Assembly: GCA_028819845.1 (NCBI GenBank)
Contig: JAPPKS010000029.1
Span: forward strand, 75,332-139,331
DNA: 64,000 bases
Source: Candidatus Poribacteria bacterium
GTDB taxonomy: Bacteria > Poribacteria > WGA-4E > PCPOR2b
Direction: 5' to 3'
Shown here: one piece after another, positions 19,628 to 47,864 of the stretch
How positions within the stretch are numbered: position 1 is the first letter of the stretch
Layout of the letters: every line of letters begins with the position of its first letter
Translations under genes and position numbers: made by a program
The notes under the pieces: generated by a model
Databases searched by the model: none
Told to the model about the DNA's origin: nothing
The model's input: the letters and a program-made list of their open reading frames with translations, nothing else

Positions 19628-21082
19628 CTATTGCGGCTGGGTACGTTTGCTCGGCAAGGCGAGCCGCGGGTGCCGCCCCAACTTTTTCAGTAGTGTGTCA
19701 ACCTCTTTGCCGTATGTATTGAAAGGATCCTGCATTTCAAATGGGTCTTCATGAGTAAAGTAAATTTGATGCCAATCAACAATGCAAGGCAAGCGATTTT
19801 GGGACAGATAGCGCATCACCTGTGTTCGTGCTTTTGCTCTGGTGTCTTCAGGGGCATTCTGAATAGCAACATTAAGCTGCTGATCGCTTGTTAGCCTCCT
19901 TGCGTGGCCTTGATTCTCCAATTCATAATAGAGCCCCTTTTCCGTATGCATGTGGTGATACTGCAGATCGAGACTCTCAAGCCACGGATCGTCCCAATCC
20001 AATCCTTCGTCCGCCATGAAGGTCTCAAGCAGCCATTTTTTTGCTACCCAATCAACCCGATCGGTTAAACGCTCCCAATCCGTTTCCAAGTCGTCCAAGA
20101 CAGATTCCCATTCGGTCAAAACCCAATCAGTGTCTTCATCCCGGCCTTTTAGTAATTTTTGTGCCAGATTTAAATATTCACGCTGCAGATCAACGGCGGA
20201 GATAGTTCCTCCCGAATCTAACTCGACCATCCACTTAAACGACTGATCCCTCGAAATCTGTTTAATGGCTTCAACCGGATTAAGAAGGCTCAAATCGCGG
20301 GGTCGATGCCCTTCTTCAATCAAATCGAGAATTAGAGAGGTCGTACCAACCTTCAAGGCGGTTACATATTCAGACATATTGGAATCTCCGACTAGCAGGT
20401 GCAGCCGCCGATATTTTGTGTGGTCACCCAGTGGTTCATCTCGAGTGTTGATGATTGCGCGGCTAAACTGGATCCATTCATAAATTTCTGTGACGATGTG
20501 ATCTGCACGTTGAGAAATTTGGAAGCCTACAAAGTCGTCGCGGCGGCAATGGGCATCTCCAAACTCAAGAATCTCTTCGTGTCCGCCTACTCGACCTGCG
20601 CCCGCAAAAATCTGCCGTGTCACAAAAAAGGGCATCAATGTCGGAATCACAACCTTGTAGAAAGGAATATCCCGCCGGAGTTGGTAATTTTCATGGCAGC
20701 CGAATGTCGCCCCGGTGAGGTGATCCACGTTATTCTTGAAAAAAGAAACCTCCTCGCCTAACCCAATGTCGTTTAGTACGTCAGCAAGCAGCCGTTCAAT
20801 AGATTTATCGTAAGCGAGAAGATCGAAAAGCTTAACGCATTCCGGCGTTGCATATTCCAGATGACCCATATCAATATAAAGCCGCCCTCCATTGAACAGG
20901 AAACCGCCGTTGCCCGGCGGTTCGCCCCAGTCTCGATAGTGCATGTCAGAGATGCCGAGCTTTAATTCGTGGAAAACGTAATCTCTGACTCGCGCAGCGA
21001 CCCCTTCAGGCGTGCCAAAAGATTGGTCGATGTTCGCCAAACATCCATATTCCGTTTCAATGCCAAATATGCGTCTACTCAC
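19628..21082 (-). CDS. pafA: PafA-type ligase for the ubiquitin-like protein
   Basis: About 484 residues, glutamine-synthetase-like. PafA uses ATP to join the C-terminal Glu of Pup/UBact to lysines of target proteins. Seen here: the Mg/ATP-binding start RRIFGIETEYG, the catalytic Asp in NGGRLYIDMGHLEYATPEC (about D71), FKNNVDHLTGATFGCHENY, INTRDEPLGDHTKYRRLH and a C terminus with VDWHQIYF...DPFNTYGKEVDTLL, as in actinobacterial PafA. It lacks the Dop-specific loop. GTG at 21082 has AGGGA upstream and starts exactly at the family N terminus; an ATG at 21130 would overlap prcA. It is the last gene of the operon, 19 bases after prcA. Confidence 0.9.
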   Translation of the reverse strand: MSRRIFGIETEYGCLANIDQSFGTPEGVAARVRDYVFHELKLGISDMHYRDWGEPPGNGGFLFNGGRLYIDMGHLEYATPECVKLFDLLAYDKSIERLLADVLNDIGLGEEVSFFKNNVDHLTGATFGCHENYQLRRDIPFYKVVIPTLMPFFVTRQIFAGAGRVGGHEEILEFGDAHCRRDDFVGFQISQRADHIVTEIYEWIQFSRAIINTRDEPLGDHTKYRRLHLLVGDSNMSEYVTALKVGTTSLILDLIEEGHRPRDLSLLNPVEAIKQISRDQSFKWMVELDSGGTISAVDLQREYLNLAQKLLKGRDEDTDWVLTEWESVLDDLETDWERLTDRVDWVAKKWLLETFMADEGLDWDDPWLESLDLQYHHMHTEKGLYYELENQGHARRLTSDQQLNVAIQNAPEDTRAKARTQVMRYLSQNRLPCIVDWHQIYFTHEDPFEMQDPFNTYGKEVDTLLKKLGRHPRLALPSKRTQPQ

Positions 21083-21101
21083 AACGTTCCCTCGTAGCGG
21101 G

Positions 21102-21938
21102 CTAAAGCCAATCTGAAATAGCTGCATCAATATTTTCCGCAGAAATCGAGCGAAACTTGCTCTTGCTTCGGCGGGATTCTTGCAAGACGCCTACATTAAT
21201 CTGCCCTTGGTTCAACTCTCTTTTGAGCACGCCGTGTATGTGCTCTATGTCCATATTAAGTTTACCGGGATTCTCCTCTTCGCAACGGCTGTTACCTCCC
21301 TCTACCTGCCCGGAATCTTCCGCCCCGATATAGTTCGAATTTTCAACGTTTGGGCTTACATCCCAACCGACTGCCCACGCTTCTAGCCCCAATCGCAACG
21401 CTGAAGTAAACGAAAGGCCGGCTGAATCCGAGTTCGATAAGTGACTTTTCATCGCCGTTTCAACTTTCTCTGTGCCGCCAATAACTTCCGCCGACTGATT
21501 TGACCGCGTTGTGCCATCATAATTCAGCGCAACGAATTGATGCCCTTGTCCATGGCTGCCCAGTTCAGCCAGCAGCATTTTTATGATATAAGCGGATGCA
21601 AAAACAGCTTCAAAGGCTTGTTTTATAGTAGGTCCCAGTACAAAATTTGAGAGTCGGTGTAGAGTGACATCATCCACCGAACTTTGAAACCCTTGTACGG
21701 AAGCGGTGTCAGTTGCCAGCATGCGCAAACGTTCGATATCCGCAGTGTGTCCGATTGCCGACAGCGCTAGGCGGTCGTGGACTTCGAAGATTTTACGCTG
21801 ACCGCGCCCGATTGTCAAAAGCAACAATCCCTCATCGTAGCTTAATCCAACTACAGGGCTTCCCATTCGTAGTTGGTCTTCAATGTAGTCGCGCCGATTG
21901 TTGATTGCTTCAATCCAGCGATATGGCTCATCCAACAT
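21102..21938 (-). CDS. prcA: 20S proteasome alpha subunit
   Basis: About 278 residues. Alpha subunits form the outer rings of the 20S core and gate substrate entry. The N-terminal region (EPYRWIEAINNRRDYIEDQL, then SPVVGLSYDEGLLLLTIG) matches bacterial PrcA. Later, IFEVHDRLALSAIGHTADIERLRMLA fits the alpha fold, and no catalytic Thr is present, as expected. The C-terminal half holds a long polar segment (NSNYIGAEDSGQVEGGNSRCEEENPG), which makes it longer than the mycobacterial protein. The ATG at 21938 overlaps the prcB end by 11 bases, implying coupled translation; an ATG at 21950 is also possible. Confidence 0.86.
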   Translation of the reverse strand: MLDEPYRWIEAINNRRDYIEDQLRMGSPVVGLSYDEGLLLLTIGRGQRKIFEVHDRLALSAIGHTADIERLRMLATDTASVQGFQSSVDDVTLHRLSNFVLGPTIKQAFEAVFASAYIIKMLLAELGSHGQGHQFVALNYDGTTRSNQSAEVIGGTEKVETAMKSHLSNSDSAGLSFTSALRLGLEAWAVGWDVSPNVENSNYIGAEDSGQVEGGNSRCEEENPGKLNMDIEHIHGVLKRELNQGQINVGVLQESRRSKSKFRSISAENIDAAISDWL

Positions 21939-22734
21939 GGTCTGTCTCAACAGATTGACTATAGATTAGGCTTAATTGATCAACCGAAAGATCGCGAATC
22001 CCGTCTTTTGTAATGGTTTTGACGGTTGGAAAAATTTTTGATTTTGGATTATACCCGCTTGTCGCGGAATCATATTCTGAAGCCGCATCAAGAAGTCTTA
22101 AGATATTGATTGTAGCTTGACGCTCGTCCATTTCGATAAGACGTACATCTCCCCAGCGATTCACATGGTACAACACACCGCGAATCCACACGGAACCAGA
22201 ACCGGACGTTGCAAAATCCGCGCTTTCAAAGTGGGCGCCGAGCGCATCGTAAAAAAAGATTTGCCCCCCGTTTGCACCGCCGCTCTGCAGATTATAGACG
22301 GCGAAGATTGGAATTACGCCTCCAATGCCTTGCAATGCCATTGGCAAATTCTCGCGAATCAGGCGCGAGAGCATTCGAAGCTTTCCCTCTATGCTCAACT
22401 CTTGAAGCTGACTGCGGCGAAAATACTGGAACGAATGTTCTAGCACACGCGCCATTTCATAAGCCACGGCAGGCGCTCCCGAGATGGCCAACACGGAAAA
22501 TTCATCAATTTGCAGGACTTTTTCCGCGCGATCATAAATGACCGCCGTACCCGCCGTTGCACGTCGATCGCCGCCGATGATGACACCGTCCTTGTACCGT
22601 GTTGCGACTACTGTTGTACCTTCTGTCCATTCGGGATGATTCGAAGGTGTGTTTATAGACCCGGCAGGCGGATCAATCTGAATCTGGCAGTCATGTGCTT
22701 TCAAAAGATCAAGAAAGTCACCCTTATACTCCAT
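21928..22734 (-). CDS. prcB: 20S proteasome beta subunit (catalytic)
   Basis: A 268-residue precursor. A propeptide of 39 residues ends at EWTEG|TTVVA, so autocleavage would expose the N-terminal Thr40 nucleophile. In mature numbering Thr1, Asp17 (GGDRRAT) and Lys33 (RAEKVLQI) are all present, i.e. the catalytic set is intact. SGSGS and the DAASEYDSATSGY block further match bacterial PrcB. Beta rings form the inner proteolytic chamber. The ATG lies two bases after the UBact stop codon and the end overlaps prcA, showing tight operon coupling. Confidence 0.95.
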   Translation of the reverse strand: MEYKGDFLDLLKAHDCQIQIDPPAGSINTPSNHPEWTEGTTVVATRYKDGVIIGGDRRATAGTAVIYDRAEKVLQIDEFSVLAISGAPAVAYEMARVLEHSFQYFRRSQLQELSIEGKLRMLSRLIRENLPMALQGIGGVIPIFAVYNLQSGGANGGQIFFYDALGAHFESADFATSGSGSVWIRGVLYHVNRWGDVRLIEMDERQATINILRLLDAASEYDSATSGYNPKSKIFPTVKTITKDGIRDLSVDQLSLIYSQSVETDHVG

Positions 22735-22736
22735 GC

Positions 22737-22937
22737 CTATTCACCTGTTCGCTGCCGATACCGCCGCGATTGATCTTTATCAACACGCTTCATCCGGCGG
22801 AGCAACTCTTTTGTGTCTGGCTTATTAACATCCGGACGTTTCGGCCCCTCATCTTCGCCATCGCCCCCGCCGCTATCAAGCGGCTTTGCGGGCCTTCGGA
22901 TGCGGTCTCGAAAAAGGGCAATATCATATGTAGTCAT
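22737..22937 (-). CDS. UBact: UBact/Pup ubiquitin-like protein modifier
   Basis: A 66-residue, highly charged and probably disordered protein. Gly/Asp-rich centre (DSGGGDGEDEG), then a conserved-looking C-terminal segment KPDTKELLRRMKRVDKDQS ending RYRQRTGE. The end in Gly-Glu means it should be ready for ligation without Dop deamidation. Actinobacterial Pup ends Gly-Gly-Gln/Glu; the R-[TS]-G-[EQ] ending is, from memory, the hallmark reported for UBact of Gram-negative phyla. The ATG at 22937 has a strong AGGAGG eight bases upstream; a further 15 in-frame residues upstream are not needed. Its position directly before prcB and after dop fixes the identity. Confidence 0.92.
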   Translation of the reverse strand: MTTYDIALFRDRIRRPAKPLDSGGGDGEDEGPKRPDVNKPDTKELLRRMKRVDKDQSRRYRQRTGE

Positions 22938-23201
22938 GCGTATTACCTCCTGTAGGGAAATTGATGGACTTGGCAACCCCAACAGTCATCCTATATATCT
23001 TCTAGGTCACGAATTCATCTAAACTTTACAAGTCAGCTACTCAATTGCAACGAGAATATTGTCTTTGTTAAACTAGTATAACTAACTTTCGGTATGTGCA
23101 ATTCAACCTGGGGAAAACGAATTTTGCATTCGTTATCGACGCGATACACCCGTTGTGCTAACCACGTTGAAAAATCTCTTGCTGCGGCAGCCTGCCTCTC
23201 C

Positions 23202-24722
23202 CTACGCCTTACACAAGCCCAGATTCTCAAGTAACGCTTCAACTGTTTGAGACTTGTTTAGAATACGGTTATATTTTTCTGAAATTTCTGGATTGGCAAG
23301 TTGGTTCATGTTCACCGTAAACGGCTGCCCTTTGGAGTTGAATGTGATACTGTCCCATTGCACAGATTTGACGTGAGAACGAAATTTATGCAGAGATTTA
23401 CCTCTAAAATATGCGCGAGTGTCCGTCGGCGGATTCTGAATTGCTTCTTCAATCTGTTGATCGGTAACGACGCGCTGCATTAACCCTTGGGTTTCCAATC
23501 CATAATATAACCCTGCGTCGCAATCAATGTTGTGATACTCCAGGTCAAGGCTCTGTAACCACGTATCGTCCCAACCAAGGTTTTCTTCATCAATAAAGGT
23601 ATCTAGCAGCCATTTTTTGGCGACCCAGTCGAGTTGGCTTCTCAGCTCCATCGGTTCTTTTTCAAGCGAATCTAGCACTGATTCCCATTCGGCAAGTACC
23701 CAATCCGTCTCATCGTTTATTGTGTTGAGATGTTTTTGGGCTAAAGCGAGATATTCCCGCTGGAGATTTACCGCCGAAATTGTCTTTCCGTTATTTAACT
23801 TTAACAACCATTCATATGTTTGATCGCGGGAAATTTCTTTGATGGCGTGAGTCGGCTGGTGAATCGTAAAATCTTCCGGGATTCGATTCTCCTCAATTAA
23901 ATCTATGACTAGCGTCGTCGTGCCAACCTTTAGCGCCGTAGCATACTCTGACATATTCGCATCACCGACAATGCCGTGCAAGCGGCGGAATTTAGTGGGA
24001 TCAGCATGTGGTTCGTCCCGCGTATTCACGATGGGGCGGTTGTGCATCGTATCAACGCTCGCTTCAACATGAAAAAAATCTGAGCGCTGCGCGAGTTGAA
24101 ATAAACCCGCTGAATTCAGGCCCGACTCGGTTTCGATTCCTACTTTGCCGGCGCCTGCAAAAATTTGCCGCGTAATCAAAAACGGCATGATACTCTCTTT
24201 GAGATATTCAAAAGGGATGTCACGCCGCATTAGGTAGTTATCATGACAGCCGTAACTGTGTCCGTGAAAATCAGTGTTGTTTTTATATAGGACTACGCGC
24301 TTGCCTATTTCTAGACTCCGTCTCGACGCGCATCGTTGAAGTATCCGCTCGCCGCTCTTATCATGGGCAACTAGCTGAAAAAGACTGCGGCATTCAGCCG
24401 TGGAGTATTCAGGATGTGCATGGTCGTTGTATAGACGAGCACCGTTGTTTAGAATTAAGTCGCTTTTGATTTCAAGTGCAGACAGATTGCGATGCCGGTC
24501 CGCTGCCTGGTGACTCCGCTCATCTGGGTGTTCCTCCAATGTCTTTGCGCGGAAGCCGCGCACATCTTGTAACGGGTCCTCGCCGCTGTAATCCCACATC
24601 GGATAAAAATCGCCGTGTCTATAACTCTTGATTAATTCGATGGATTGTTGGACTGGATCGATGTTGTCCTCGCCTTCAATTGTAATGCCGTATTCCGTTT
24701 CGATTCCCAAGAGTCTTTGCAT
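23202..24722 (-). CDS. dop: Dop: deamidase/depupylase homologue
   Basis: About 506 residues, paralogue of PafA. It carries Dop hallmarks: start MQRLLGIETEYG, WDYSGEDPLQDVRGFRA followed by a variable loop (about residues 52-88, the Dop-loop position), catalytic Asp in NNGARLYNDHAHPEYSTAEC (about D100), and NPPTDTRAYFRGKSLHKF with VQWDSITF at the end, as in mycobacterial Dop. Because UBact already ends in Glu, the likely role is removing the modifier from proteins. The ATG at 24722 begins at the family N terminus; a further ATG at 24836 would add 38 unrelated residues. No strong ribosome-binding site is visible. Confidence 0.92.
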   Translation of the reverse strand: MQRLLGIETEYGITIEGEDNIDPVQQSIELIKSYRHGDFYPMWDYSGEDPLQDVRGFRAKTLEEHPDERSHQAADRHRNLSALEIKSDLILNNGARLYNDHAHPEYSTAECRSLFQLVAHDKSGERILQRCASRRSLEIGKRVVLYKNNTDFHGHSYGCHDNYLMRRDIPFEYLKESIMPFLITRQIFAGAGKVGIETESGLNSAGLFQLAQRSDFFHVEASVDTMHNRPIVNTRDEPHADPTKFRRLHGIVGDANMSEYATALKVGTTTLVIDLIEENRIPEDFTIHQPTHAIKEISRDQTYEWLLKLNNGKTISAVNLQREYLALAQKHLNTINDETDWVLAEWESVLDSLEKEPMELRSQLDWVAKKWLLDTFIDEENLGWDDTWLQSLDLEYHNIDCDAGLYYGLETQGLMQRVVTDQQIEEAIQNPPTDTRAYFRGKSLHKFRSHVKSVQWDSITFNSKGQPFTVNMNQLANPEISEKYNRILNKSQTVEALLENLGLCKA

Positions 24723-24807
24723 AATTATTAGAATGCGTCGTCCTGAATCCTCCCGTTTACGAATGGGGGGTTGGAGGGGGTGATAACACAGTTGCAGCAA
24801 TTCCACC

Positions 24808-24839
24808 GGGATGCCCAAATCGTAGGGGTTGGGCATCCC
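24808..24839. repeat. Hairpin element between arc and dop
   Basis: GGGATGCCCAA and TTGGGCATCCC form a perfect 11-bp stem with a 10-base loop. It is flanked by G/C-rich tracts resembling the short intergenic repeats seen elsewhere in the window. No U tract follows on the minus strand, so it is not a typical terminator; it may tune arc versus dop expression. Confidence 0.6.
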
Positions 24840-24925
24840 TATCCACTAAATGCCGTTTCCTACCCCTTACGAAGGGGACGTTAGCGGGGGTAGAATCACT
24901 TTTACGGACAGATCCGCACCAATGC

Positions 24926-26716
24926 CTAGATTACGTGAGTCGCGGTAGATTTTCTGCGGTTTGATTTTTCAGGGCGAAATGGGGTTACCTTGACAACTTT
25001 CTCAGGGTCATAGTCGAGCAGTTTCAGCCAATCTTCCACACTATCCGTCGCCGGAAAAATTTCATTTTCGCGGTATTCTGCTGCAACTGCATCCAGGAGA
25101 TCGCCTGCACGAATCCCGACGCCATCATCGCCAGGGGCATCAACTTCTTTAATGTGTTCGCTGCGTTCAATTGCCCTTTTGATTGCGGATTCTTTGGCAC
25201 GTTGAATTATGGAAGCGATAATCGCACCATTACAAAGATCGCCCCGATACAACGTGTCACGACGACCGTTTTGCAAAACAACCTCTAAGAACTTGTTACT
25301 TTCGGTGCGCTGAAACAGTTCGCTGCAGACCAAATCAAGGAGGTGCGAAACAGCGTCTTCTGAATTGCCGTTATGCGTTTCTAGCACTTCAGGATCGATT
25401 GGTAGATCTGACGCGAGATAAATGCGGGCGATTTCCTCCGCCCCTTCTTTATCCGGCCGCCTGACCTTTATCTTTCGGTCAATGCGTCCAGGGCGCAGAA
25501 TCGCAGGATCGATAAGATCCGGGCGGTTCGTTGCGAGAATTATCACGACATCTTTCAGCGACTCGAGCCCGTCCATTTCGGCACAAAACATCGGTACAAC
25601 CGTGTTTGAAATGTTATGGGAGCGGAAGGATCGGCGTGTTCCCAAGATGGACTCTGCTTCGTCAATAAAAACAAACGGTAGGAAACCCTCGTGCCGTTTT
25701 TCACGCGCAATCTGGAAGATTTCACGCACCTTGCGTTCCGATTCGCCAAGCCACATATTTAGAATTTCCGGCCCCTTGATGTGGAGGAAACACCCTGTGA
25801 CATCAGATCCTGTCTCTTGTCTCAATCGCTGCGTCAGATTGTAGGCCGTGGCTTTGCCAATGAGCGTCTTGCCGCAACCGGGAGGGCCATACAACAGAAA
25901 ACCCTTGGGAGGCGCATATTGGAAGCGATTAAAGAGGTCAGGGTAGAGAATCGGAAGCTCAATAGTATCTTTAATTAGTTGAATGGTATCATTCAATCCT
26001 CCAATTTTCGTCCAAGGCACCTGTGGCACGTCTTCGAGGAAGTAATCTTTCACTTCTTTAACTTCAAGTCGTTCAAGCGCAACTCTAAAGTTTGCATCGA
26101 TACGAATTTCTTCGTTCGCTTTGAGTTTTGCGTTGGCGAGATCGGTCGACCGGTTTAATACAACCGCCTGCAATCCATGTTCCTGCCCAACCCGTAGTCG
26201 GCCGTCAGGCATCACATCAACAATCTTACCAGTTGGTCCGGACTGGTTGTATCCTAGCTCGCCAACTACGACATACGCCTCGTTAAGCAGTACACTGTAA
26301 CCGATTTTGAGAGACGAGGGATCCATTTGTGGATGAAGGTTTGCAAAATACTCTGAACCGCCTACAATCACATGGGCAACATCTTTTTTCGGCAAGCCTA
26401 ACAGTGTCCCAATTCGATTTGCGGGTGCCGTGAGTTTTTCAACGACCTGCTGCATCTCGACGATTGTCTGTCTCGCCTCTTGAAACGTCATTTCATCTTC
26501 CAGGATGGCACGCCGCAGTTCATACAGCAGCGGACGAATGCCGTCGTCTTCAGGGGTTGCGAAGATGAGTTGGTCGACTAACATCAGAGATCGAGGTAAT
26601 CCTGCCGTATCCTCATCATCTTCCCCAATCTCTTCTTCAAAGTCGTCATTGTCGAATAATCGTATGCGCTCCTCGGATATTTTCTCATGCCGGTTAACAT
26701 CTTTTTTGTTTTGCAT
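24926..26716 (-). CDS. arc: Proteasome-associated AAA+ ATPase (ARC/Mpa)
   Basis: A 596-residue unfoldase that captures tagged proteins and feeds the 20S core. Order seen: acidic N terminus, a coiled-coil region (about 62-98), one or two OB folds (about 100-215, with GPTGKIVDVMPDGRLRVGQ) and the AAA domain. The latter has Walker A GPPGCGKT (277-284), Walker B FVFIDEAES and arginine-finger region ILRPGRIDRKIKV. The C terminus ends THVI, lacking both the GQYL ending of mycobacterial Mpa and an HbYX motif, so docking to the core must differ. The ATG has GGAG seven bases upstream. It is the first gene of the proteasome operon. Confidence 0.93.
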   Translation of the reverse strand: MQNKKDVNRHEKISEERIRLFDNDDFEEEIGEDDEDTAGLPRSLMLVDQLIFATPEDDGIRPLLYELRRAILEDEMTFQEARQTIVEMQQVVEKLTAPANRIGTLLGLPKKDVAHVIVGGSEYFANLHPQMDPSSLKIGYSVLLNEAYVVVGELGYNQSGPTGKIVDVMPDGRLRVGQEHGLQAVVLNRSTDLANAKLKANEEIRIDANFRVALERLEVKEVKDYFLEDVPQVPWTKIGGLNDTIQLIKDTIELPILYPDLFNRFQYAPPKGFLLYGPPGCGKTLIGKATAYNLTQRLRQETGSDVTGCFLHIKGPEILNMWLGESERKVREIFQIAREKRHEGFLPFVFIDEAESILGTRRSFRSHNISNTVVPMFCAEMDGLESLKDVVIILATNRPDLIDPAILRPGRIDRKIKVRRPDKEGAEEIARIYLASDLPIDPEVLETHNGNSEDAVSHLLDLVCSELFQRTESNKFLEVVLQNGRRDTLYRGDLCNGAIIASIIQRAKESAIKRAIERSEHIKEVDAPGDDGVGIRAGDLLDAVAAEYRENEIFPATDSVEDWLKLLDYDPEKVVKVTPFRPEKSNRRKSTATHVI

Positions 26717-27447: not shown

Positions 27448-28119
27448 TCAAACCGGCAAAATACAATCCGGTGTATCGTTGCTCGGCTTATTCACCAGAC
27501 GAGAAACCGCGTAGGCAGTCATTTCATCCGCGGGATACGGCTGGAGTAGGCGATCCAACTCGGCGGGTGCTCGGTCGGTCGGATTTAACCATAGGTCATA
27601 CGCATCATTATCCAGAATTACCGGCATTCGATGATGTATCTGCTCTAGCATCTCGTTCGGCGGGCACGTAATGATTGTGCATGACAAGACGGCGTCTGAC
27701 TCCTGTGTTGGTTTCCACTGCTCCCACAGCCCGGCGAAGGCGAAAGGCTGCTCCGATGCCATGCGGATGTAATACGGTGTTTTTGCGCCGCCGCCCGGAT
27801 CCTTACACCACTCGTAATATCCGTCTGCCAATATGAGGCATCGCCGACGCTTGTATGCGGTTCGGAATGAAGGTTTTTCCGCCAACGTCTCTGATCGTGC
27901 GTTTATCATTCGATTGCCGATTGCCGGGGCCTTTGCCCACGACGGAATCAACCCCCACCGGAAGAATTCTATTTTGGCGGATTTGTTGTTCGCAACGACA
28001 GCGACGTCTTGGGTAGGTGTAATGTTGTAGCGTGGGTTTGGTTGGTCGGCAAGTTCCAACCCGGGGAAGGTTTCTGTCAATGTGGTGGTGGTAGCTGTAA
28101 GCGTGAATCGACCGCACAT
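27448..28119 (-). CDS. SRAP-domain protein (HMCES/YedK family)
   Basis: A 223-residue SOS-response-associated protein. After removal of Met, Cys2 (MCGRF) forms a covalent bond with abasic sites in single-stranded DNA. Other active-site residues are visible: Asn73 in MINARSET, Glu103 in DGYYEW, and the HHRMP block near residue 162. The length is typical. It lies 79 bases after dnaE2 on the same strand, a common pairing in bacterial mutagenesis cassettes, and would protect abasic sites during lesion bypass. GGGAG precedes the ATG. Confidence 0.93.
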   Translation of the reverse strand: MCGRFTLTATTTTLTETFPGLELADQPNPRYNITPTQDVAVVANNKSAKIEFFRWGLIPSWAKAPAIGNRMINARSETLAEKPSFRTAYKRRRCLILADGYYEWCKDPGGGAKTPYYIRMASEQPFAFAGLWEQWKPTQESDAVLSCTIITCPPNEMLEQIHHRMPVILDNDAYDLWLNPTDRAPAELDRLLQPYPADEMTAYAVSRLVNKPSNDTPDCILPV

Positions 28120-28198: not shown

Positions 28199-31100
28199 TC
28201 AAGTCCAATTGTTTTGGCGCCCACTATTCCCGCTTCTGCCTGGATCCGCTGCTGAACCTTTGCCGAAAGACATTTCTGTAAAATACTGTGCTTGGATGTT
28301 AATCAACTCGCCCTCACGCTGCAAGATGCCGCAAACGCACACAAACGGAGAAAGCTTGAAAATCGATCGGTAGCGATTATAAACATCGCGCGAAATAATC
28401 ACATTGAGCAGGCTTTCCTCGTCTTCGATTAGCATGAAGGCGACTCCCTTTGCCGTGGCAGGTTTTTGTATACACACGACTAGCCCTGCTACGCAGGTTC
28501 TTACGCCGTTTCGAAGTTTTTTCAGCGTGTCGCCGCGCCGGACACTCTTATTGAGCGTATTCCGAATGTACTGCATCGGATGCGTGTGCGTCGAAAACCC
28601 CTGAACGCGGTATTCCCACGCCAACTGAGACCATAAGTCAATTCTTGGCAGCGGCGGCGCGGTGATGTCCGGATGGATGAGCAAATTCTTATCTCGCCAC
28701 CGGTTAAGTATCCACAGTTGCCACGACAGTTCCCTGCGCGGCAAACCAAAATCATCGAACGCGCCGGCGCCAATCAGATTTTCGGTATTAGATGAACTGA
28801 GTTGTGTCCGTAGGACGAAATCCTGCAGCGACTTGAACCGCCCGCGTTCACGGGCATTCACAATTGACTCGGCCTTCGCCGTACTGATACCTTTCACACA
28901 GACTAAACTTAATCGAATAGCTTGCGGTTCTGTATTTTCGAGATAACAACGGACACCGCTGCGATTAACGTTCACGCTTAAGATTTTTACCCCGCTGCGC
29001 TGGGCGTCGGCTATCAAGATTCGCACCGGATAGAACCCAAGCGGCTGATTGTTAATGAGCGCTGCAGTATAAGCGGCTGGATAGTAGCGCTTAAGCCATG
29101 CCGACTGGTAAGCGAGCTGGGCGAACACTAAAGCGTGCGATTTACAAAATCCATAGCCTGCAAACCCTTTAATACAGTCGAAAATCTGGATCGCATCGCT
29201 GCGCGAAACCCCGTTTCCGACCGCGCTGTCCACGAAGTCGACTTCCATCTTGTCAACAACTTTCTTAAAGCGGTGTTTATCCAGATCGCGCCTCAAATTT
29301 TCAGCCTTGCCAGCGGTGTAACCGGCAATGGCGCAAGCGATTTGGACGATCTGTTCTTGAAAGAGCACCACCCCCAGCGTCTCTTCAAGAATTGGCTCAA
29401 GCAGGCGGTGCTGATACTGAATTCTCTCACGCCCCTGTCTTCGCCGAATGTAGGGGTTCACGGCGCGTCCTTGTACCGGCCCCGGCCTTATTATCGCCAC
29501 TTCAATTGCTAGGTCTAACAAATTGTGCGGTTTGACGCGCGGCAACGTCTGCATTTGGACGCGCGATTCGATTTGGAACAATCCAATCGTGTCGGCGCGG
29601 GCAATCATATCGTATACGTCGGCATCGTCAGTATTAATGTCCGCTAGGTCAATTTTAAGTCCGTAAGCCTCGGCAATCAAAATAAGGCATTCTCTAATGA
29701 CAGCGAGGATGCCCAAGCCTAATAAGTCCACTTTGATCAGGCCCGCGGTTTCAACATAATCTTTGTCCCATTGGCAGATTCGTTGCCCTTGCGTCGTTGA
29801 ATACTGCAGCGGCACTAACTTCGTAAGTTCACACGAAGTGATTATCATCCCGCCCGGATGGGTCGAAACGTGGCGGGGCGTTCCGATTACCGCCTGAACC
29901 TGATCTCGGAAATGCCGCCACTTTGCTTGTTTGGTATAACAATCAAACTGCTTGAATGTCTCAATCTTGCTAAACGCAGGTTCTGGATCTTTTCGTCCTT
30001 CCGTGAAGCGTGACATCGTTTCCAACAGAGATTGCGGGTAGCCAAAAACCTTGCCAATCTCGCGGATAGCCATCTTGACGCCGAAGGTGATGAACGTGCA
30101 GGTCAATCCTACACAATCAACGCCGTATTTACGCTGAACGTAGTTCAGGACATCATCTCGATCAGGCAATCGAACATCGCGCGCAGAGGCGAAATCGAGG
30201 TCAATGTCCGGAATTGTAGATCGCTCTTCGTTGAGAAAACGGGCGAATACCAAATTATACGCAATCGGATCCACTGTCGTAATATCGAGAAGATAAGTCA
30301 CAAGCGAATTCGCCGCCGAACCGCGGCCCTGTGTCGGGATGCCCTTAGATTGGGCGAATTGCACGATATCCCACACCATTAAGAAATATCCGGCAAGGCC
30401 TAGACGCCCGATAAGCGTAAGTTCCTCGCGCAGTCTAGCTCTAATCCGGTCTGTTATTGAGGCATACTTTTTGGAGAGCGATGCCTCACATAGCATGGTC
30501 AAATATGTGCTTTCCGTATAGCCCGCAGGCACGGCATAGTTCGGGAATCGATATTTAGAAAAATCGAACTCAACATTGCATTGCTCACTGATTAGCCGCG
30601 TATTCTTCAACGCCGACGGCATTTCTCTAAATAGCGCCGCCATTTCCTGCGGCGGCTTGAGATAGCGTTGATGGTTTGCGGACCGTATCCCGTCCGATTC
30701 GTCTAGTGTCACTTTATGGACGATGCACCGCATCACATCGTGCAATCGCGCCTTATCCTCAGCCGCATAATGCACCGCATTGCTAGCGGCGCACGGCAGG
30801 CATAACTCGTGCGCTAGTTGACACAGTGCTTTGCAGAGACCGGTATCACCGGGTTCGAGATGGTTGTTGAGCTCGATATAGAGATGGCCGCCGGAAAAGA
30901 TTTGGCGGTACGCATCTAAACGCGCCCGCGCCAATTCAATCTGATTCTGCTGCAAGAGCGCGGCGGCGTGGCTCTGTTTTCCAATCAGGCAAATGAGATT
31001 ACGTGAGCATTCGCTGAGTTGCTCTGCTGTTACTTGCGGATCGGATGCCGCGTTGGCGTGAGCTTGAGTAATCAACCGCGAAAGTTGATGATAACCCGTA

Positions 31101-31354
31101 ATGTCTTGGCACAATAAAACGACTTTATCAACTTTATCGTCTAAGGCTACGGAAATGACAGAACCGACAATGCTGTGAAGCCCAATCTCTTCGCATCGGT
31201 TAATAAACGGAATCACGCCGTACAAGCCGGCTGTATCCGTTAACGCCAACCCTTTCAATCCCAGTTTCTGCGCCCGCTCGGCAAGTACATCCGGGCTGGA
31301 AGTGCCATCCAAAAAACTGTAATAGCTATGACAGTGAAGTTCGGCGTAGTCCAT
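28199..31354 (-). CDS. dnaE2: Error-prone DNA polymerase III alpha subunit DnaE2
   Basis: 1051 residues, the size of DnaE2. PHP domain at the N terminus (MDYAELHCHSYYSFLDGTSSP). The polymerase core has PTQGRGSAANSLVTYLLDIT and catalytic PDIDLDFA. The segment ECLILIAEAYGLKIDLADIN...GLFQIESRVQM and a C-terminal OB fold follow (VAGLVVCIQKPATAKGVAFMLIEDE). DnaE2 does mutagenic lesion bypass with ImuB. It lies downstream of an imuB-like gene and upstream of the SRAP gene, all minus strand. No ImuA-like protein is nearby. Confidence 0.93.
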   Translation of the reverse strand: MDYAELHCHSYYSFLDGTSSPDVLAERAQKLGLKGLALTDTAGLYGVIPFINRCEEIGLHSIVGSVISVALDDKVDKVVLLCQDITGYHQLSRLITQAHANAASDPQVTAEQLSECSRNLICLIGKQSHAAALLQQNQIELARARLDAYRQIFSGGHLYIELNNHLEPGDTGLCKALCQLAHELCLPCAASNAVHYAAEDKARLHDVMRCIVHKVTLDESDGIRSANHQRYLKPPQEMAALFREMPSALKNTRLISEQCNVEFDFSKYRFPNYAVPAGYTESTYLTMLCEASLSKKYASITDRIRARLREELTLIGRLGLAGYFLMVWDIVQFAQSKGIPTQGRGSAANSLVTYLLDITTVDPIAYNLVFARFLNEERSTIPDIDLDFASARDVRLPDRDDVLNYVQRKYGVDCVGLTCTFITFGVKMAIREIGKVFGYPQSLLETMSRFTEGRKDPEPAFSKIETFKQFDCYTKQAKWRHFRDQVQAVIGTPRHVSTHPGGMIITSCELTKLVPLQYSTTQGQRICQWDKDYVETAGLIKVDLLGLGILAVIRECLILIAEAYGLKIDLADINTDDADVYDMIARADTIGLFQIESRVQMQTLPRVKPHNLLDLAIEVAIIRPGPVQGRAVNPYIRRRQGRERIQYQHRLLEPILEETLGVVLFQEQIVQIACAIAGYTAGKAENLRRDLDKHRFKKVVDKMEVDFVDSAVGNGVSRSDAIQIFDCIKGFAGYGFCKSHALVFAQLAYQSAWLKRYYPAAYTAALINNQPLGFYPVRILIADAQRSGVKILSVNVNRSGVRCYLENTEPQAIRLSLVCVKGISTAKAESIVNARERGRFKSLQDFVLRTQLSSSNTENLIGAGAFDDFGLPRRELSWQLWILNRWRDKNLLIHPDITAPPLPRIDLWSQLAWEYRVQGFSTHTHPMQYIRNTLNKSVRRGDTLKKLRNGVRTCVAGLVVCIQKPATAKGVAFMLIEDEESLLNVIISRDVYNRYRSIFKLSPFVCVCGILQREGELINIQAQYFTEMSFGKGSAADPGRSGNSGRQNNWT

Positions 31355-31672: not shown

Positions 31673-32473
31673 CTATCGGCATAGTTTCCAATCGTCGCGG
31701 ACAAGATCGTGGCAAACTGTTAACTCGCGTCCGGAAGTATACAATTTGAAGTAAATCAACTCTTGCGGTTTTTCTGTCCACCAAGCGTCCTCTAGCTTCC
31801 AGACATCTATAATGCCGTCAAAATATAGCCACTTGTCATCGTATCGCATGCGCTCGGGAAAGTCGATGCACCCAATTTTTTTTGACGTTACCGCAATTCG
31901 CTCTGAATGGCCGCTGAGTTCCTTGCCCCAGATGGTTAAGTGTTGTGCAGTGGTGTCAGCGGTTATTGGCGGTCGATAGAACGTAAGCGGGGATGGGTCG
32001 ACGCCTTTTCCTAACTCTGACATCGCAGCCCCTTGCTTTCCAAATTGCCGGATTAGATCCGCCTTTTTGATGTTAGCCAACTGTCCGAGCATACAGAGTC
32101 CCAATCTGTCCAGACGCCTATGCAGTTCGGCATCGAGCGGCAGAAGCGAAACGCTCTGATTTGCCATAAACGCCGGCGTCTCCTCTGATGATACAACGCA
32201 CGGCGCATCCGGGGTTGCGTTTTGCGCCGCGGCAAGACTGGCGAAACGGGACGATGCGACACCGACGCGGATATCGGGGCAAATCCCTTTCAGCTCGCCT
32301 CGTAAATGTCTGATGAAATCGTCGGCTTCGTCCGTAATTTCGGAGACCCCTAAATTTACATAGATGCTGTTATTTTTGATTTCACACCTCAGACGCCCAG
32401 CCTCTTCCGTCAATATTTCTTGAATCTCTTTTAATTGAGCCTTAAGGTTCTCTACCAGCAAGCAAGCAATCAT
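31673..32473 (-). CDS. imuB: Short ImuB-like Y-family polymerase homologue
   Basis: 266 residues, about half the usual length of ImuB (around 500). It keeps the opening strand of the palm (MIACLLVEN), a palm-like segment (RVGVASSRFASLAAAQ), the thumb/HhH-like part (LHRRLDRLGLCMLGQLANIKKADLIRQFGKQG...KGVDPSP) and the ending WKLEDAWWTEKPQELIYFKLYTSGRELTV...WKLCR typical of ImuB. Roughly 80-100 residues between the first strand and the Y-family middle are absent, as are the catalytic carboxylates and an obvious beta-clamp-binding motif. ImuB is normally a non-catalytic adaptor for DnaE2. A promoter (32515-32543) precedes it, so it heads the cassette. Confidence 0.72.
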   Translation of the reverse strand: MIACLLVENLKAQLKEIQEILTEEAGRLRCEIKNNSIYVNLGVSEITDEADDFIRHLRGELKGICPDIRVGVASSRFASLAAAQNATPDAPCVVSSEETPAFMANQSVSLLPLDAELHRRLDRLGLCMLGQLANIKKADLIRQFGKQGAAMSELGKGVDPSPLTFYRPPITADTTAQHLTIWGKELSGHSERIAVTSKKIGCIDFPERMRYDDKWLYFDGIIDVWKLEDAWWTEKPQELIYFKLYTSGRELTVCHDLVRDDWKLCR

Positions 32474-43310: not shown

Positions 43311-43558
43311 GGGCAACTCCTTTTAGATGTTGGGAGAATATTCGCTCGCCAACAACATCGCCGTGCAGAACTTTGAGATTGATGGCGCAACCGGTCAAAA
43401 CATTATACCACGTTTCGTGGGATTTCTGTCAATCGGTTTTAGCTCACCGCGCTGCCGCTGAATGTTCATTGTGATTCGCGGTTATAATGTGGTATCATTC
43501 TAATCTAAGTCCTATATTTCACTGCCGGATTCCGCCTGATTACGCAAGGAGGCAAAGG

Positions 43559-45358
43559 ATGCAACCCGATTCTGCCGAAGAAACTATTCAACGGCTAACG
43601 TTCAGTCTGTCAGAGCTAGAGCAGCTTGGTGAGGCAATTCTTACAGGCGGGGGAAATTTTAATGTGTCTAGCAAGACATATCTGCGGGTAATTCTTGGAA
43701 CATTGGGCGTAACCAAGGGCGCAATTTTTTCTTTCGATGCGGCGGAAAGCCATCTGGTGATTGAATCGGAGATTAACCTCAATAATGAATCACTAGTAAT
43801 TCCAGTGGCTTCGGACGAAATTTCCATCATACGCGGTTCCTCAATCATTGAAATTTCTCAGCCGCCCCACCTCCTGGAGCCGTTGTTTAACAGCATTCGG
43901 CCGCAACTGCAAAACCTTGACGCTCAACTTTGGGCGCCGCTCAAAATCCGTGACGAACTTCTGGGAGTCATCAGTCTGGGCCCGTTTCTATCCGGAATGA
44001 GAATGGAATCGTGGGCGCGCGGCGTGTTAAGTGTATTAGCCAACCAAACCTCGATTGCAATGGCATATTCACGTTTGATGGATGAGATGCGCGCTGACAA
44101 GTTTCACCTTTTTCTCCTTTCTGATATAACCACTCAGATTTACAAACAGTTGAACACGGAACGTCTAGAGGAGGAAATCATAAGCCATGCAGTAACGCTG
44201 TTAGACGCCAACGCGGGTTACCTATTCCTCACCGATCCGTTTACCCGCCAACTCGAGTTAAAGAGCAGCTTATACCTCAATCCGGCATCGGATTCCGGCC
44301 TGACGGCAAATCTTAACGAAATAGGTGAGTTGTCGTCCCATGCCATGATTAGTGATGTTGCAGCGGGCGGGAGAACATTGGTGTGCAATGATGAAAAAAC
44401 GGCTGCGCCGTTTGGCAGGGCGAACCTGATAGCTACTCCGATTTTTGGGCGTGAGGAAAATTTGGGTGTTCTCGTTGTATGCGACAAGGAGGATCGAGGC
44501 GGAGTTGCGCGTAAACTGACTTCCGAGGACAGAATTCTGCTTGAAGCCTTTTCAAACCAATCGGGTGTGATTGTCGAAAATGCTCGGCTTTATCAAGAGG
44601 CGCTTGAACGGCGGCGAATGCAAGCAGAAATGGAGGAAGCGGAAAAAATTCAGAGAAACCTCCTCCCGGACGCGCCGCCTGAAATCGCCGGTTATGAACT
44701 CGCGGGGATTTCTATACCGCGCGGCGGTGTTGGCGGAGATTACTACGATTACATTCGAGAACCCAATGGGCGGTGGGGACTTGCGATTGCCGATGTCTCT
44801 GGAAAAGGCATGCAGGCTGCCCTGCTGATGGCAACACTGCGGGCCGGCTTGCTTTCAGAAGTAGCGCGGCGTAATGATTTGCCGAGCATGGCAATAACCC
44901 TGAATTCGCTGCTTTATGAGAGCAGTACTCTCGGCAAATTCGCAACCTTCTTCTACGCGCAGTTGAATCCGGAAACCGGTGAGTTGACTACAATGAATGC
45001 AGGGCATAACTACCCCGTGGTTGTTCGAAGTGATGGCAGCACAGAGCGGCTAACGGTCGGCGGCGTAATGTTAGGCATGTTTCCCGATGATATGATCCAT
45101 CAGATTTCGACCTATGAGCAGGAGACGATTAAGCTTGATAACGGCGACATCGTCCTGTTTTATACCGATGGCGTGACCGAAACATTCAACATCAACAAAG
45201 AGCTTTTTGGAGAGAAACGGTTGGAACACCTCGTGAGCCGGATTCATCACCGAGATGCGAAGGAAATTTGCGGTTCAATACATAATGCAGTGTTGGAATT
45301 CCAAGGGGAAGCCCGGCAGTTTGACGATTTAACGCTCATGGTGCTTAAGAAAACGTAA
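43559..45358 (+). CDS. GAF-domain PP2C phosphatase (RsbU/SpoIIE type), copy 1
   Basis: About 599 residues. Two GAF-like sensory regions (about 40-180 and 190-355), a coiled linker (RLYQEALERRRMQAEMEEAEKIQRNLLPDAPPEIAGYE), then a SpoIIE-type PP2C domain. The latter has metal-binding GGDYYDY, IADVSGKGMQAALLMATLRAG, FYTDGVTE and final FDDLTLMVL. Such enzymes dephosphorylate STAS anti-sigma antagonists. The STAS protein just downstream (45576) is the obvious substrate. The ATG at 43559 has AGGAGG six bases upstream. It is paralogous to the gene at 46053 from its first residues (AEETIQRL). Confidence 0.9.
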   Translation: MQPDSAEETIQRLTFSLSELEQLGEAILTGGGNFNVSSKTYLRVILGTLGVTKGAIFSFDAAESHLVIESEINLNNESLVIPVASDEISIIRGSSIIEISQPPHLLEPLFNSIRPQLQNLDAQLWAPLKIRDELLGVISLGPFLSGMRMESWARGVLSVLANQTSIAMAYSRLMDEMRADKFHLFLLSDITTQIYKQLNTERLEEEIISHAVTLLDANAGYLFLTDPFTRQLELKSSLYLNPASDSGLTANLNEIGELSSHAMISDVAAGGRTLVCNDEKTAAPFGRANLIATPIFGREENLGVLVVCDKEDRGGVARKLTSEDRILLEAFSNQSGVIVENARLYQEALERRRMQAEMEEAEKIQRNLLPDAPPEIAGYELAGISIPRGGVGGDYYDYIREPNGRWGLAIADVSGKGMQAALLMATLRAGLLSEVARRNDLPSMAITLNSLLYESSTLGKFATFFYAQLNPETGELTTMNAGHNYPVVVRSDGSTERLTVGGVMLGMFPDDMIHQISTYEQETIKLDNGDIVLFYTDGVTETFNINKELFGEKRLEHLVSRIHHRDAKEICGSIHNAVLEFQGEARQFDDLTLMVLKKT

Positions 45359-46052: not shown

Positions 46053-47864
46053 ATGCAGTCTGCTTCTGCTGAAGAAACCATTCAACGACTAGTTCTCAAT
46101 CTGTCTGAGCTTGAACATCTCGGTGATGCGGTTGTTTCCGGCCGCGGCAACTTTAGCGCTTCGAGTCAAGCATATCTTCGGATAGTCCTTGATACACTGA
46201 GTGTGACCGATGGGGCAATTTTGCGCTTCCATCCGAATGCTAACGAACTTACCATCGAATCGTCAATCAATGTCGATGATGATTCACTCGTGATTTCGGT
46301 GCATCCCGGCGAGATTGCCGCCATGATTCAGTTTCCGGTCCTCGATCTGTCACGTCCGCCGCTCGTCCTGGAGCCGTTTTTTGATGCTATTCAACCTCAG
46401 TTGAAGCGCCTTGGCGCCCACCTATGGGCTCCGTTAAAAATTGGCGAGGAATGTTTTGGCGTAATCAGTTTAGGCGCACTTCCCGCTCGCATCAAAATGG
46501 CATCATGGAGCAGGAAACTTGTGAATGTGCTAGCCAACTATGTTTCAAGACAGATTGCACATTCGCGAGCGCTGGAAGAGATGAAAACTGCCAAGTTTCA
46601 GCTCTTTCTGCTTTCCGATATCGCCGCACAGATGGGCAGGTTATTGGATACGGCGCACCTTGAGAGTGAAATAGTGCACCACGCTGTCAGTCTCTTTGAC
46701 GCACGCGGCGGTTGTTTACTGCTTATGGATGCAATGAGCCAACGGCTCGAGATGAAAAGCAGCTTTGTTATGGAGGCAGAATCCAATCCTGAATGGGAAG
46801 ACCTTTCGATTTCACTTCAAGGCAACGGAGAAGTTCATCCCGCGGTTTCCCTGCTCCGCGGAGTCGCAGCGCAAGGTAAAACGCTCATTCGCAACCGCGA
46901 AAAAGAAGCGGAGTTTTTCGGCGCAAAAAATCTCATGGTGGTGCCGATTTTTGGACGTGAGATTCTGGGCGTATTGGTTGTTTATGATAAGGAAGAGCAG
47001 CACGGAGTTACTGCAGACTTCACGCAAAGAGATGGGATTTTGTTGGAAGCCTTCGCCAATCAGGCAGGGGTCGTCATAGAAAATGCGCGGCTGTATCAAG
47101 AAGCTCGAGAACGTCGTCGGCTGCAAACAGAAATTGAGGAAGCGTCAAAAATACAGAAAAATCTCATCCCCTCCACTCCGCCGGAAATCCCCGGCTACGA
47201 GGTAGTCGGATTGAGTGTTCCCCACCACGATGAAGTTGGGGGAGATTATTACGATTTTATTAAAGAACCGGATGGGTTGTGGGGATTTGCAGTTGCTGAT
47301 GTCTGTGGAAAAGGCATGCAAGCTGCGCTGCTTATGGCGATGCTTCGGATGGGGCTGCGCGCAGAGGTAGCCAGACACAATGATTTGAGGTCAATGGCAG
47401 CAGCGCTGAATGCACTGCTTTATGAAGGGAGTACTACTGACACTTATGCTACCCTTGTTTACGCCAAGTTGGATCCAGCACGCGGAATGCTCACGTCCAT
47501 TAGCGCGGGGCACAACCTTGCAATGGTTGTGCGGCGTGACGGCAGCGTAAATCGCTTGGAGAAGGGTGGTCTAGTATTGGGGATGTATCCCGATGACTTG
47601 CTTCGTCAAATTGTAGAATATGAACAAGAAACAACGATATTGTCCAGCGGCGACACGGTTCTGCTTTACACCGACGGAATTACCGACACCCTAAACTTAG
47701 ACGATGAAATGTTTGGGGAAGCGCGCTTAGTTGAACTTGTGACGGAGCGGCGCAATGCAACCGCCACCGAAATTTGCACGGCAATTTACAATGCCGTACA
47801 AAGTTTTCAAGGGGAAGCCAATCCATTCGACGATTTAACGCTGATGGTTCTTAAGAGAAAGTGA
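46053..47864 (+). CDS. GAF-domain PP2C phosphatase (RsbU/SpoIIE type), copy 2
   Basis: 603 residues, the same architecture as the gene at 43559: N-terminal AEETIQRLVLNLSELEHLGD, two GAF-like regions, a coiled linker and a PP2C domain with GGDYYDF, VADVCGKGMQAALLMAMLRMG, LYTDGITD and FDDLTLMVL. The two are clearly paralogues by tandem duplication with the STAS gene between them. The sensory halves differ most, so each may answer to a different signal. GGAG lies eight bases before the ATG. Confidence 0.9.
   Translation: MQSASAEETIQRLVLNLSELEHLGDAVVSGRGNFSASSQAYLRIVLDTLSVTDGAILRFHPNANELTIESSINVDDDSLVISVHPGEIAAMIQFPVLDLSRPPLVLEPFFDAIQPQLKRLGAHLWAPLKIGEECFGVISLGALPARIKMASWSRKLVNVLANYVSRQIAHSRALEEMKTAKFQLFLLSDIAAQMGRLLDTAHLESEIVHHAVSLFDARGGCLLLMDAMSQRLEMKSSFVMEAESNPEWEDLSISLQGNGEVHPAVSLLRGVAAQGKTLIRNREKEAEFFGAKNLMVVPIFGREILGVLVVYDKEEQHGVTADFTQRDGILLEAFANQAGVVIENARLYQEARERRRLQTEIEEASKIQKNLIPSTPPEIPGYEVVGLSVPHHDEVGGDYYDFIKEPDGLWGFAVADVCGKGMQAALLMAMLRMGLRAEVARHNDLRSMAAALNALLYEGSTTDTYATLVYAKLDPARGMLTSISAGHNLAMVVRRDGSVNRLEKGGLVLGMYPDDLLRQIVEYEQETTILSSGDTVLLYTDGITDTLNLDDEMFGEARLVELVTERRNATATEICTAIYNAVQSFQGEANPFDDLTLMVLKRK

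What the first reader, a model, noticed from the sequence alone, without database searches (positions are those of the whole stretch)
19628..26716. Complete UBact/Pup proteasome operon in an LPS-bearing bacterium
All six parts lie on one strand in the order ARC ATPase, Dop, UBact, PrcB, PrcA, PafA. UBact-prcB are 2 bases apart, prcB-prcA overlap and prcA-pafA are 19 bases apart. Catalytic residues of PrcB (Thr1, Asp17, Lys33), the PafA Asp and Dop Asp are all present. The same window has lipid A and Lpt genes, so this is a tagging-proteasome system in a diderm. The UBact idea is established knowledge; this exact locus may be unstudied.
Basis: partly seen in the sequence, partly recalled or inferred. 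Interest (0 to 1): 0.85.

Follow-up and report, generated by a model that had tools for sequence, protein, structure and literature searches.

The report
Two parallel protein-tagging proteasomes, one genome
The locus is a genuine, complete bacterial tag-and-shred (UBact) proteasome operon of a known kind, but its uncultured host (Candidatus Poribacteria) also carries a second complete operon of the better-known Pup kind, and sequence differences suggest the two machines are kept apart inside one cell.

Summary
Confirmed: window 19628-26716 (- strand) holds ARC ATPase, Dop, UBact, PrcB, PrcA and a PafA-like ligase in that order; the 66-aa tag matches the curated UBact families (Pfam PF20513, NCBIfam NF033388) and ends in Gly-Glu. 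By itself this is a new member of a known kind, present in 76 of 85 genomes of the host phylum, Candidatus Poribacteria. UBact and Pup co-occur in 71 of 85 phylum genomes, including six single-contig genomes in which I read both six-gene operons, and their sequence distances co-vary (Spearman 0.90-0.94), so this is old co-inheritance, not contamination. The sets look insulated: UBact is basic (median +6), Pup acidic (-19); the three tag-handling proteins are more acidic in the UBact set in every genome compared, while PrcA/PrcB do not shift; ATPase docking tails differ (Val-Ile against Tyr/Phe-Leu). The UBact ligase has ligase-type signatures but is not a typical PafA; its ancestry is unresolved. 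Conjugation, degradation and insulation are inferred, not shown. I found no report of the pairing, but the original UBact paper could not be read.

The parts
24926..26716 (-). UBact-type ARC/Mpa-like proteasomal AAA ATPase (596 aa), ends ..ATHVI
   Evidence: PF00004 112 bits, Prot_ATP_ID_OB_N/C 54/33 bits; TIGR03689 pup_AAA 455 bits, below its 505 cut-off; best PDB match Mpa, 345 bits
23202..24722 (-). UBact-type Dop (506 aa), has a Dop-loop and the DHAHPEY active-site motif
   Evidence: PF03136 559 bits; TIGR03688 496 bits, above its 492 cut-off; UBact-type Dops are Dop-type at 9 of 21 signature positions against 2 PafA-type
22737..22937 (-). UBact tag (66 aa), basic, ends ..RRYRQRTGE
   Evidence: PF20513 72 bits, NF033388 75 bits; net charge +5
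21928..22734 (-). proteasome beta subunit PrcB (268 aa, 39-residue propeptide, Thr1 at residue 40)
   Evidence: PF00227 71 bits, TIGR03690 165 bits; T1, D17, K33 invariant in the ungapped relatives
21102..21950 (-). proteasome alpha subunit PrcA (282 aa from TTG; probable start ATG at 21938)
   Evidence: TIGR03691 73 bits; Mtb PrcA in PDB, 45 bits; AlphaFold model pLDDT 65, best Foldseek matches M. tuberculosis proteasome chains, E 1e-7; Lys53 (= Mtb Lys52) invariant in 65 of 65
19628..21082 (-). PafA-like UBact ligase (484 aa, GTG start), acidic, alpha-loop EWIQFSR
   Evidence: PF03136 467 bits; TIGR03686 372 / TIGR03688 363 bits, both below cut-off; UBact-type ligases are PafA-type at 7 signature positions against 2 Dop-type

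Best explanation
The locus encodes a complete UBact tagging-and-degradation system that runs beside a second, complete canonical Pup system in the same cell. Inferred mechanism: the PafA-like ligase uses ATP to activate the side-chain carboxylate of the C-terminal Glu of UBact and joins it to lysines of target proteins; Dop removes the tag (no deamidation is needed here, because UBact already ends in Glu, whereas the Pup of this genome ends in Gln and needs Dop as deamidase); the hexameric ARC ATPase captures UBact, unfolds the target and threads it into the PrcA/PrcB core, docking through its conserved Val-Ile tail. The Pup set does the same with its own six proteins. The two are proposed to be kept apart by charge (basic UBact with acidic ligase, Dop and ARC; acidic Pup with less acidic partners) and by different ATPase tails. 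Shown here: gene content, order, catalytic residues, co-occurrence, co-inheritance, and the charge and tail differences. Inferred from the Pup literature: conjugation, removal, degradation and insulation.
For: Six gene families and order. Second operon on contig C21 (L098) with Pup 65 aa ending NYIQRGGQ, PF05639 65 bits, ARC ending GGAYL, Dop 569 bits, PrcB 282 bits, PrcA 258 bits, all above cut-off. UBact in 76/85 and Pup in 78/85 phylum genomes, both in 71, with four Pup_ligase homologues in 61 of those 71 and usually two where only one tag is found. Single-contig genomes hold both six-gene operons at separate places. Distance matrices of the two operons correlate, Spearman 0.90-0.94, 0 of 2000 permutations. 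Tags: UBact median net charge +6, Pup -19. Per genome, ligase, Dop and ARC are more acidic in the UBact set in 12/12, 11/11 and 11/11 comparisons, PrcA and PrcB not. ARC tails: 54 of 56 distinct UBact-type end VI, all 20 Pup-type end [YF][LF]. Ligase/Dop signature positions.
Against: No experiment; nothing shows that both operons are expressed together or that the tags do not cross over. Net charge of whole proteins is a crude proxy for the tag-binding groove; the ligase structure model was too poor to map it (pLDDT 49). The charge shift of Dop and ARC is modest (-1.6 and -2.8 per 100 residues). The PafA substrate-recognition arginines R137, R207 and R218 are kept in both sets (sites from PMC10465538), so substrate choice may overlap. 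The distance correlation would arise for any two vertically inherited genes and shows co-inheritance, not cooperation.
Confidence: 0.72

Rival explanations
1. The two systems are partly redundant and exchange parts: for example the ligases, Dops or ATPases act on both tags, or both ATPases feed both cores, so that they form one broader network.
For: Both tags share the tail Y-x-Q-R-x-G-[EQ] that enters the active site; the docking-pocket lysine is kept in both alpha subunits; catalytic and substrate-recognition arginines are shared. Some genomes keep only one system.
Against: Tag bodies are of opposite charge and unrelated by profile (hhalign probability 1.4%); tag-handling proteins shift charge in the matching direction; ATPase tails are distinct and conserved; when a tag is missing, its ligase pair is usually missing too.
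Confidence: 0.2
2. The Pup operon in this genome is binning contamination and the host has the UBact system only.
For: The host is a 35-contig assembly and the two operons lie on different contigs.
Against: Six single-contig genomes of the phylum have both; Pup is in 78/85 genomes; the host's Pup-type ligase and Dop fall among those of its own family and order; 1.5% estimated contamination, C21 is 303 kb.
Confidence: 0.01
3. The UBact modification is mainly regulatory, or the ligase-like protein is a second depupylase-type enzyme, rather than part of a degradation tag pathway.
For: The ligase groups with its own Dop rather than with PafA in the trees (88/85, 94/92), lacks the PafA insertion and the alpha-loop threonines, and its best PDB matches are Dops.
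Against: It lacks the Dop His95, has only a short insert where Dop has its loop, and is PafA-type at 7 of 21 signature positions against 2 Dop-type; tag, core and ATPase genes sit together with it, which argues for degradation; the AU test does not reject grouping with PafA (p 0.30 and 0.21).
Confidence: 0.07

Closest known systems
UBact conjugation-proteasome system (Lehmann, Udasin, Livneh, Ciechanover 2017, BBRC 483:946; cited in PMC12751074)
   Same: Tag family PF20513/NF033388, Gly-Glu end, Dop/PafA homologues and proteasome genes, Gram-negative host.
   Different: Here it coexists phylum-wide with a complete canonical Pup system. I could not read the 2017 paper, so whether it already lists Poribacteria or co-occurrence is unknown to me.
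Pup-proteasome system of Actinobacteria (PMC2588565, PMC7947786, PMC8599861)
   Same: Same functions as the second operon (L098); same catalytic residues; common tag tail YxQ[RK]xG[EQ].
   Different: The window's tag is basic and not a Pup by profile; its ATPase ends Val-Ile instead of GQYL; its ligase lacks the PafA insertion and alpha-loop threonines. The published analysis took one Dop and one PafA per genome (PMC7947786), whereas here there are typically two of each.
Mpa/ARC ATPase (PMC8142254; PDB 7px9, 5kwa)
   Same: OB double domain, AAA domain and invariant Walker motifs; 345 bits to 7ljf/7px9.
   Different: Below the TIGR03689 cut-off; acidic N-terminal region; C-terminal Val-Ile instead of the GQYL gate-opening motif.

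Membership tests
UBact (PF20513 / NF033388) | tag scores above the curated cut-off | tested here: met
   72.4 against 27.8 and 75.3 against 35 bits
UBact (PF20513 / NF033388) | C-terminal Gly-Glu/Gln | tested here: met
   YRQRTGE; 62 of 64 distinct Poribacteria tags end TGE, 2 end TGQ
UBact system | genes for ligase, Dop, ATPase and 20S core alongside | tested here: met
   one family has the operon split in two, with ARC-Dop elsewhere
UBact system | diderm (LPS) host | tested here: met
   lipid A acyltransferase, LptC, LptA, ABC ATPase in the window, LpxC and Omp85 in the genome; LptD not found by Pfam
UBact system | covalent UBact on lysines and degradation by the proteasome | not testable with these tools
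   needs biochemistry or proteomics
Pup (PF05639) | window tag matches the Pup profile | tested here: not met
   only UBact reported for the window tag; hhalign UBact against Pup probability 1.4%, 9 tail columns aligned
Pup system (second operon, L098) | Pup profile and GGQ/E end, Dop, Mpa, PrcA, PrcB above cut-off | tested here: met
   its PafA scores 529.5 against a 551.3 cut-off, the only one below
PafA (TIGR03686) | score above the equivalog cut-off | tested here: not met
   372 against 551 bits
PafA | catalytic Asp64 and Arg207 | tested here: met
   invariant in 63 of 63 aligned window-type ligases
PafA | one-residue insertion after the catalytic Asp; alpha-loop Thr-Thr | tested here: not met
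   insertion absent in 63/63; Ile/Val and Gln in place of the threonines
Dop (TIGR03688) | score above cut-off, Dop-loop, His95 | tested here: met
   496.3 against 492.3 bits; Dop-loop and DHAH present
Mpa/ARC (TIGR03689) | score above cut-off and GQYL-like tail | tested here: not met
   455 against 505 bits; tail Val-Ile
20S core (TIGR03690/TIGR03691) | score above cut-off | tested here: not met
   165 against 192 and 73 against 139 bits
20S core | beta Thr1/Asp17/Lys33; alpha docking-pocket Lys | tested here: met
   invariant across Poribacteria apart from one gapped row

The most novel reading that the evidence does not exclude
Most Poribacteria run two complete, mutually insulated protein-tagging proteasomes at once: one with an acidic tag (Pup) and one with a basic tag (UBact). 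Tag, ligase, Dop, ATPase N-terminal region and docking tail have co-diverged so that the machines do not cross-react, and the UBact ligase arose within the Dop side of the family, a second origin of ligase activity.
Probability: 0.35. Interest if true: 0.85.

Novelty: new variant of a known kind. Interest (0 to 1): 0.62.

Why it matters
Bacterial proteasomes are usually described as one tag with one ligase and one remover per genome. A whole phylum that keeps two full sets side by side is a natural experiment in how ubiquitin-like pathways stay separate, gives paired sequences for working out tag-enzyme specificity, and bears on where pupylation arose: a published tree had the full pathway emerging in Actinobacteria and spreading by transfer (PMC7947786), while here both systems look anciently co-inherited in a diderm phylum.

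Tried and rejected
Contamination as the source of the second operon: rejected, because single-contig relatives carry both. UBact and Pup as detectably homologous proteins: not shown; only the nine-residue tail aligns. Claim that the UBact ligase descends from Dop: trees favour UBact ligase plus UBact Dop (88/85, 94/92), but the AU test does not reject grouping with PafA (p 0.30, 0.21), so I do not assert it. Structure of the ligase: AlphaFold model pLDDT 49, unusable. Relatives from other phyla: viral contigs gave none, plasmid records only two actinobacterial ones, and the one genome-contig scan returned only Poribacteria, so comparison with UBact systems elsewhere was not possible. UBact in the PDB: no match. 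Promoters/terminators: no excess over shuffles.

Full report
WHAT IS THERE. The finding holds. The remaining five match Pup_ligase (twice), proteasome subunit (twice, PrcA weakly) and proteasomal ATPase. The catalytic residues of PrcB and the ligase pair, the alpha-subunit docking lysine and the ATPase Walker residues are invariant, apart from one gapped row, across 56-66 relatives. PrcA is the least typical part: 73 bits to TIGR03691, but its model (pLDDT 65) matches M. tuberculosis proteasome chains best. Its conserved start is probably the ATG at 21938.

HOST. The nearest named genomes are all Candidatus Poribacteria. The diderm reading is supported by a lipid A acyltransferase, LptC, LptA and an ABC ATPase in the window and by LpxC and five Omp85 hits in the genome; LptD was not found by Pfam.

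THE SECOND OPERON. A search of the host genome returned four Pup_ligase homologues and five proteasome-fold genes; by sequence and by its HslU-like neighbour, one of the five is HslV (read by eye, no profile run). Two of the ligases and two of the proteasome genes form, with an ARC ATPase and a 65-residue Pup, a second operon on contig C21 in the same order: ARC (604 aa, ending GGAYL), Dop, Pup (ending NYIQRGGQ), PrcB, PrcA, PafA (L098 3933-10387, minus strand). These are canonical: Pup PF05639 65 bits; ARC, Dop, PrcB and PrcA above the curated NCBIfam cut-offs; PafA just below.

NOT CONTAMINATION. UBact is found in 76 of 85 genomes of the phylum and Pup in 78; 71 have both, 5 only UBact, 7 only Pup, 2 neither. 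Of the 71 with both, 61 have exactly four Pup_ligase homologues; those with one tag mostly have two. Pairwise distances in the two operons correlate at 0.90-0.94 with 0 of 2000 permutations reaching it, as expected if both have been inherited together. In one family (f7) the UBact operon is split, with a UBact-type ARC and Dop at another place.

HOW THE TWO SETS DIFFER. Tags: UBact has a median net charge of +6 and Pup -19; by profile comparison they share only the tail, Y-x-Q-R-x-G-[EQ]. Nearly all UBacts end in Glu; Pups end in Gln or Glu. Partners: in every genome compared, the ligase (12/12), Dop (11/11) and ARC (11/11) are more acidic in the UBact set, while PrcA and PrcB, which need not touch the tag, show no consistent shift. 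The N-terminal region of ARC, which in Mpa binds Pup (PMC8142254), has a median charge of -13.5 against -2. Docking: 54 of 56 distinct UBact-type ARCs end Val-Ile, all 20 Pup-type end Tyr/Phe followed by Leu/Phe; Mpa needs its GQYL end to open the core (PMC8142254). I read this as two partner sets separated by charge and by tail. It is inference: whole-protein charge is a proxy, and no binding was tested.

THE LIGASE. By the positions that separate PafA from Dop in PMC7947786, the window-type ligase is PafA-type at 7 and Dop-type at 2 of 21, and the window-type Dop is Dop-type at 9 and PafA-type at 2, so the functional labels stand. But the ligase lacks the PafA-specific insertion beside the catalytic Asp and the conserved alpha-loop threonines, having EWIQFSR instead, and carries a short insert where Dop has its loop. 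In trees it groups with the UBact Dop rather than with PafA (88/85; 94/92 without long rows), yet forcing it with PafA is not rejected (AU p 0.30, 0.21). A second origin of ligase activity is therefore possible and unproven.

NOVELTY. UBact itself is established (Lehmann et al. 2017, cited in PMC12751074), and curated families exist; the window operon alone would be a new member of a known kind. The stable pairing of complete UBact and Pup systems is, as far as the held library shows, unreported: searches for Poribacteria with proteasome, pupylation, Pup ligase or ubiquitin-like protein turned up no paper whose title or abstract describes it. Not all hits were read; PMC7203096 is held only in part, PMC10947273 was not opened, and the 2017 paper is not in the library. 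Whether other phyla also carry both systems was not testable here.

Noticed in passing
L098 3933-10387 (G000:C21:211932-218386): Complete canonical Pup operon in the same genome; it became the main extension of the finding.
   Followed up: yes
L178, L179, L181 against L170, L171, L174 (family f7 genomes): UBact operon split in two places: ARC-Dop in one, UBact-PrcB-PrcA-ligase in another; some of these UBacts end in Gln (TGQ).
   Followed up: partly
L168 8169-9436 (G006): The UBact ligase gene is broken into several frames in this 64%-complete genome; assembly error or decay, not decided.
   Followed up: no
window 28199-31354 and 31673-32473 (-): Error-prone DNA polymerase (NF004225, 1005 bits) next to a short Y-family-polymerase-like protein and an SRAP protein (27448-28119): looks like a mutagenesis cassette.
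   Followed up: partly
G000:C25:197990-199781 (L104): HslV-HslU-like pair, so the host would have three different proteasome-fold proteases.
   Followed up: partly
host genome G000: LptA, LptC and LpxC are present but no LptD by Pfam PF04453; a divergent or missing outer-membrane LPS inserter.
   Followed up: no
window 43487-45358, 46053-47864, 50649-51827: Two adjacent, similar phosphatase-like regulator proteins followed by a histidine kinase and a response-regulator protein; a signalling cluster seen while reading the ORF list.
   Followed up: no
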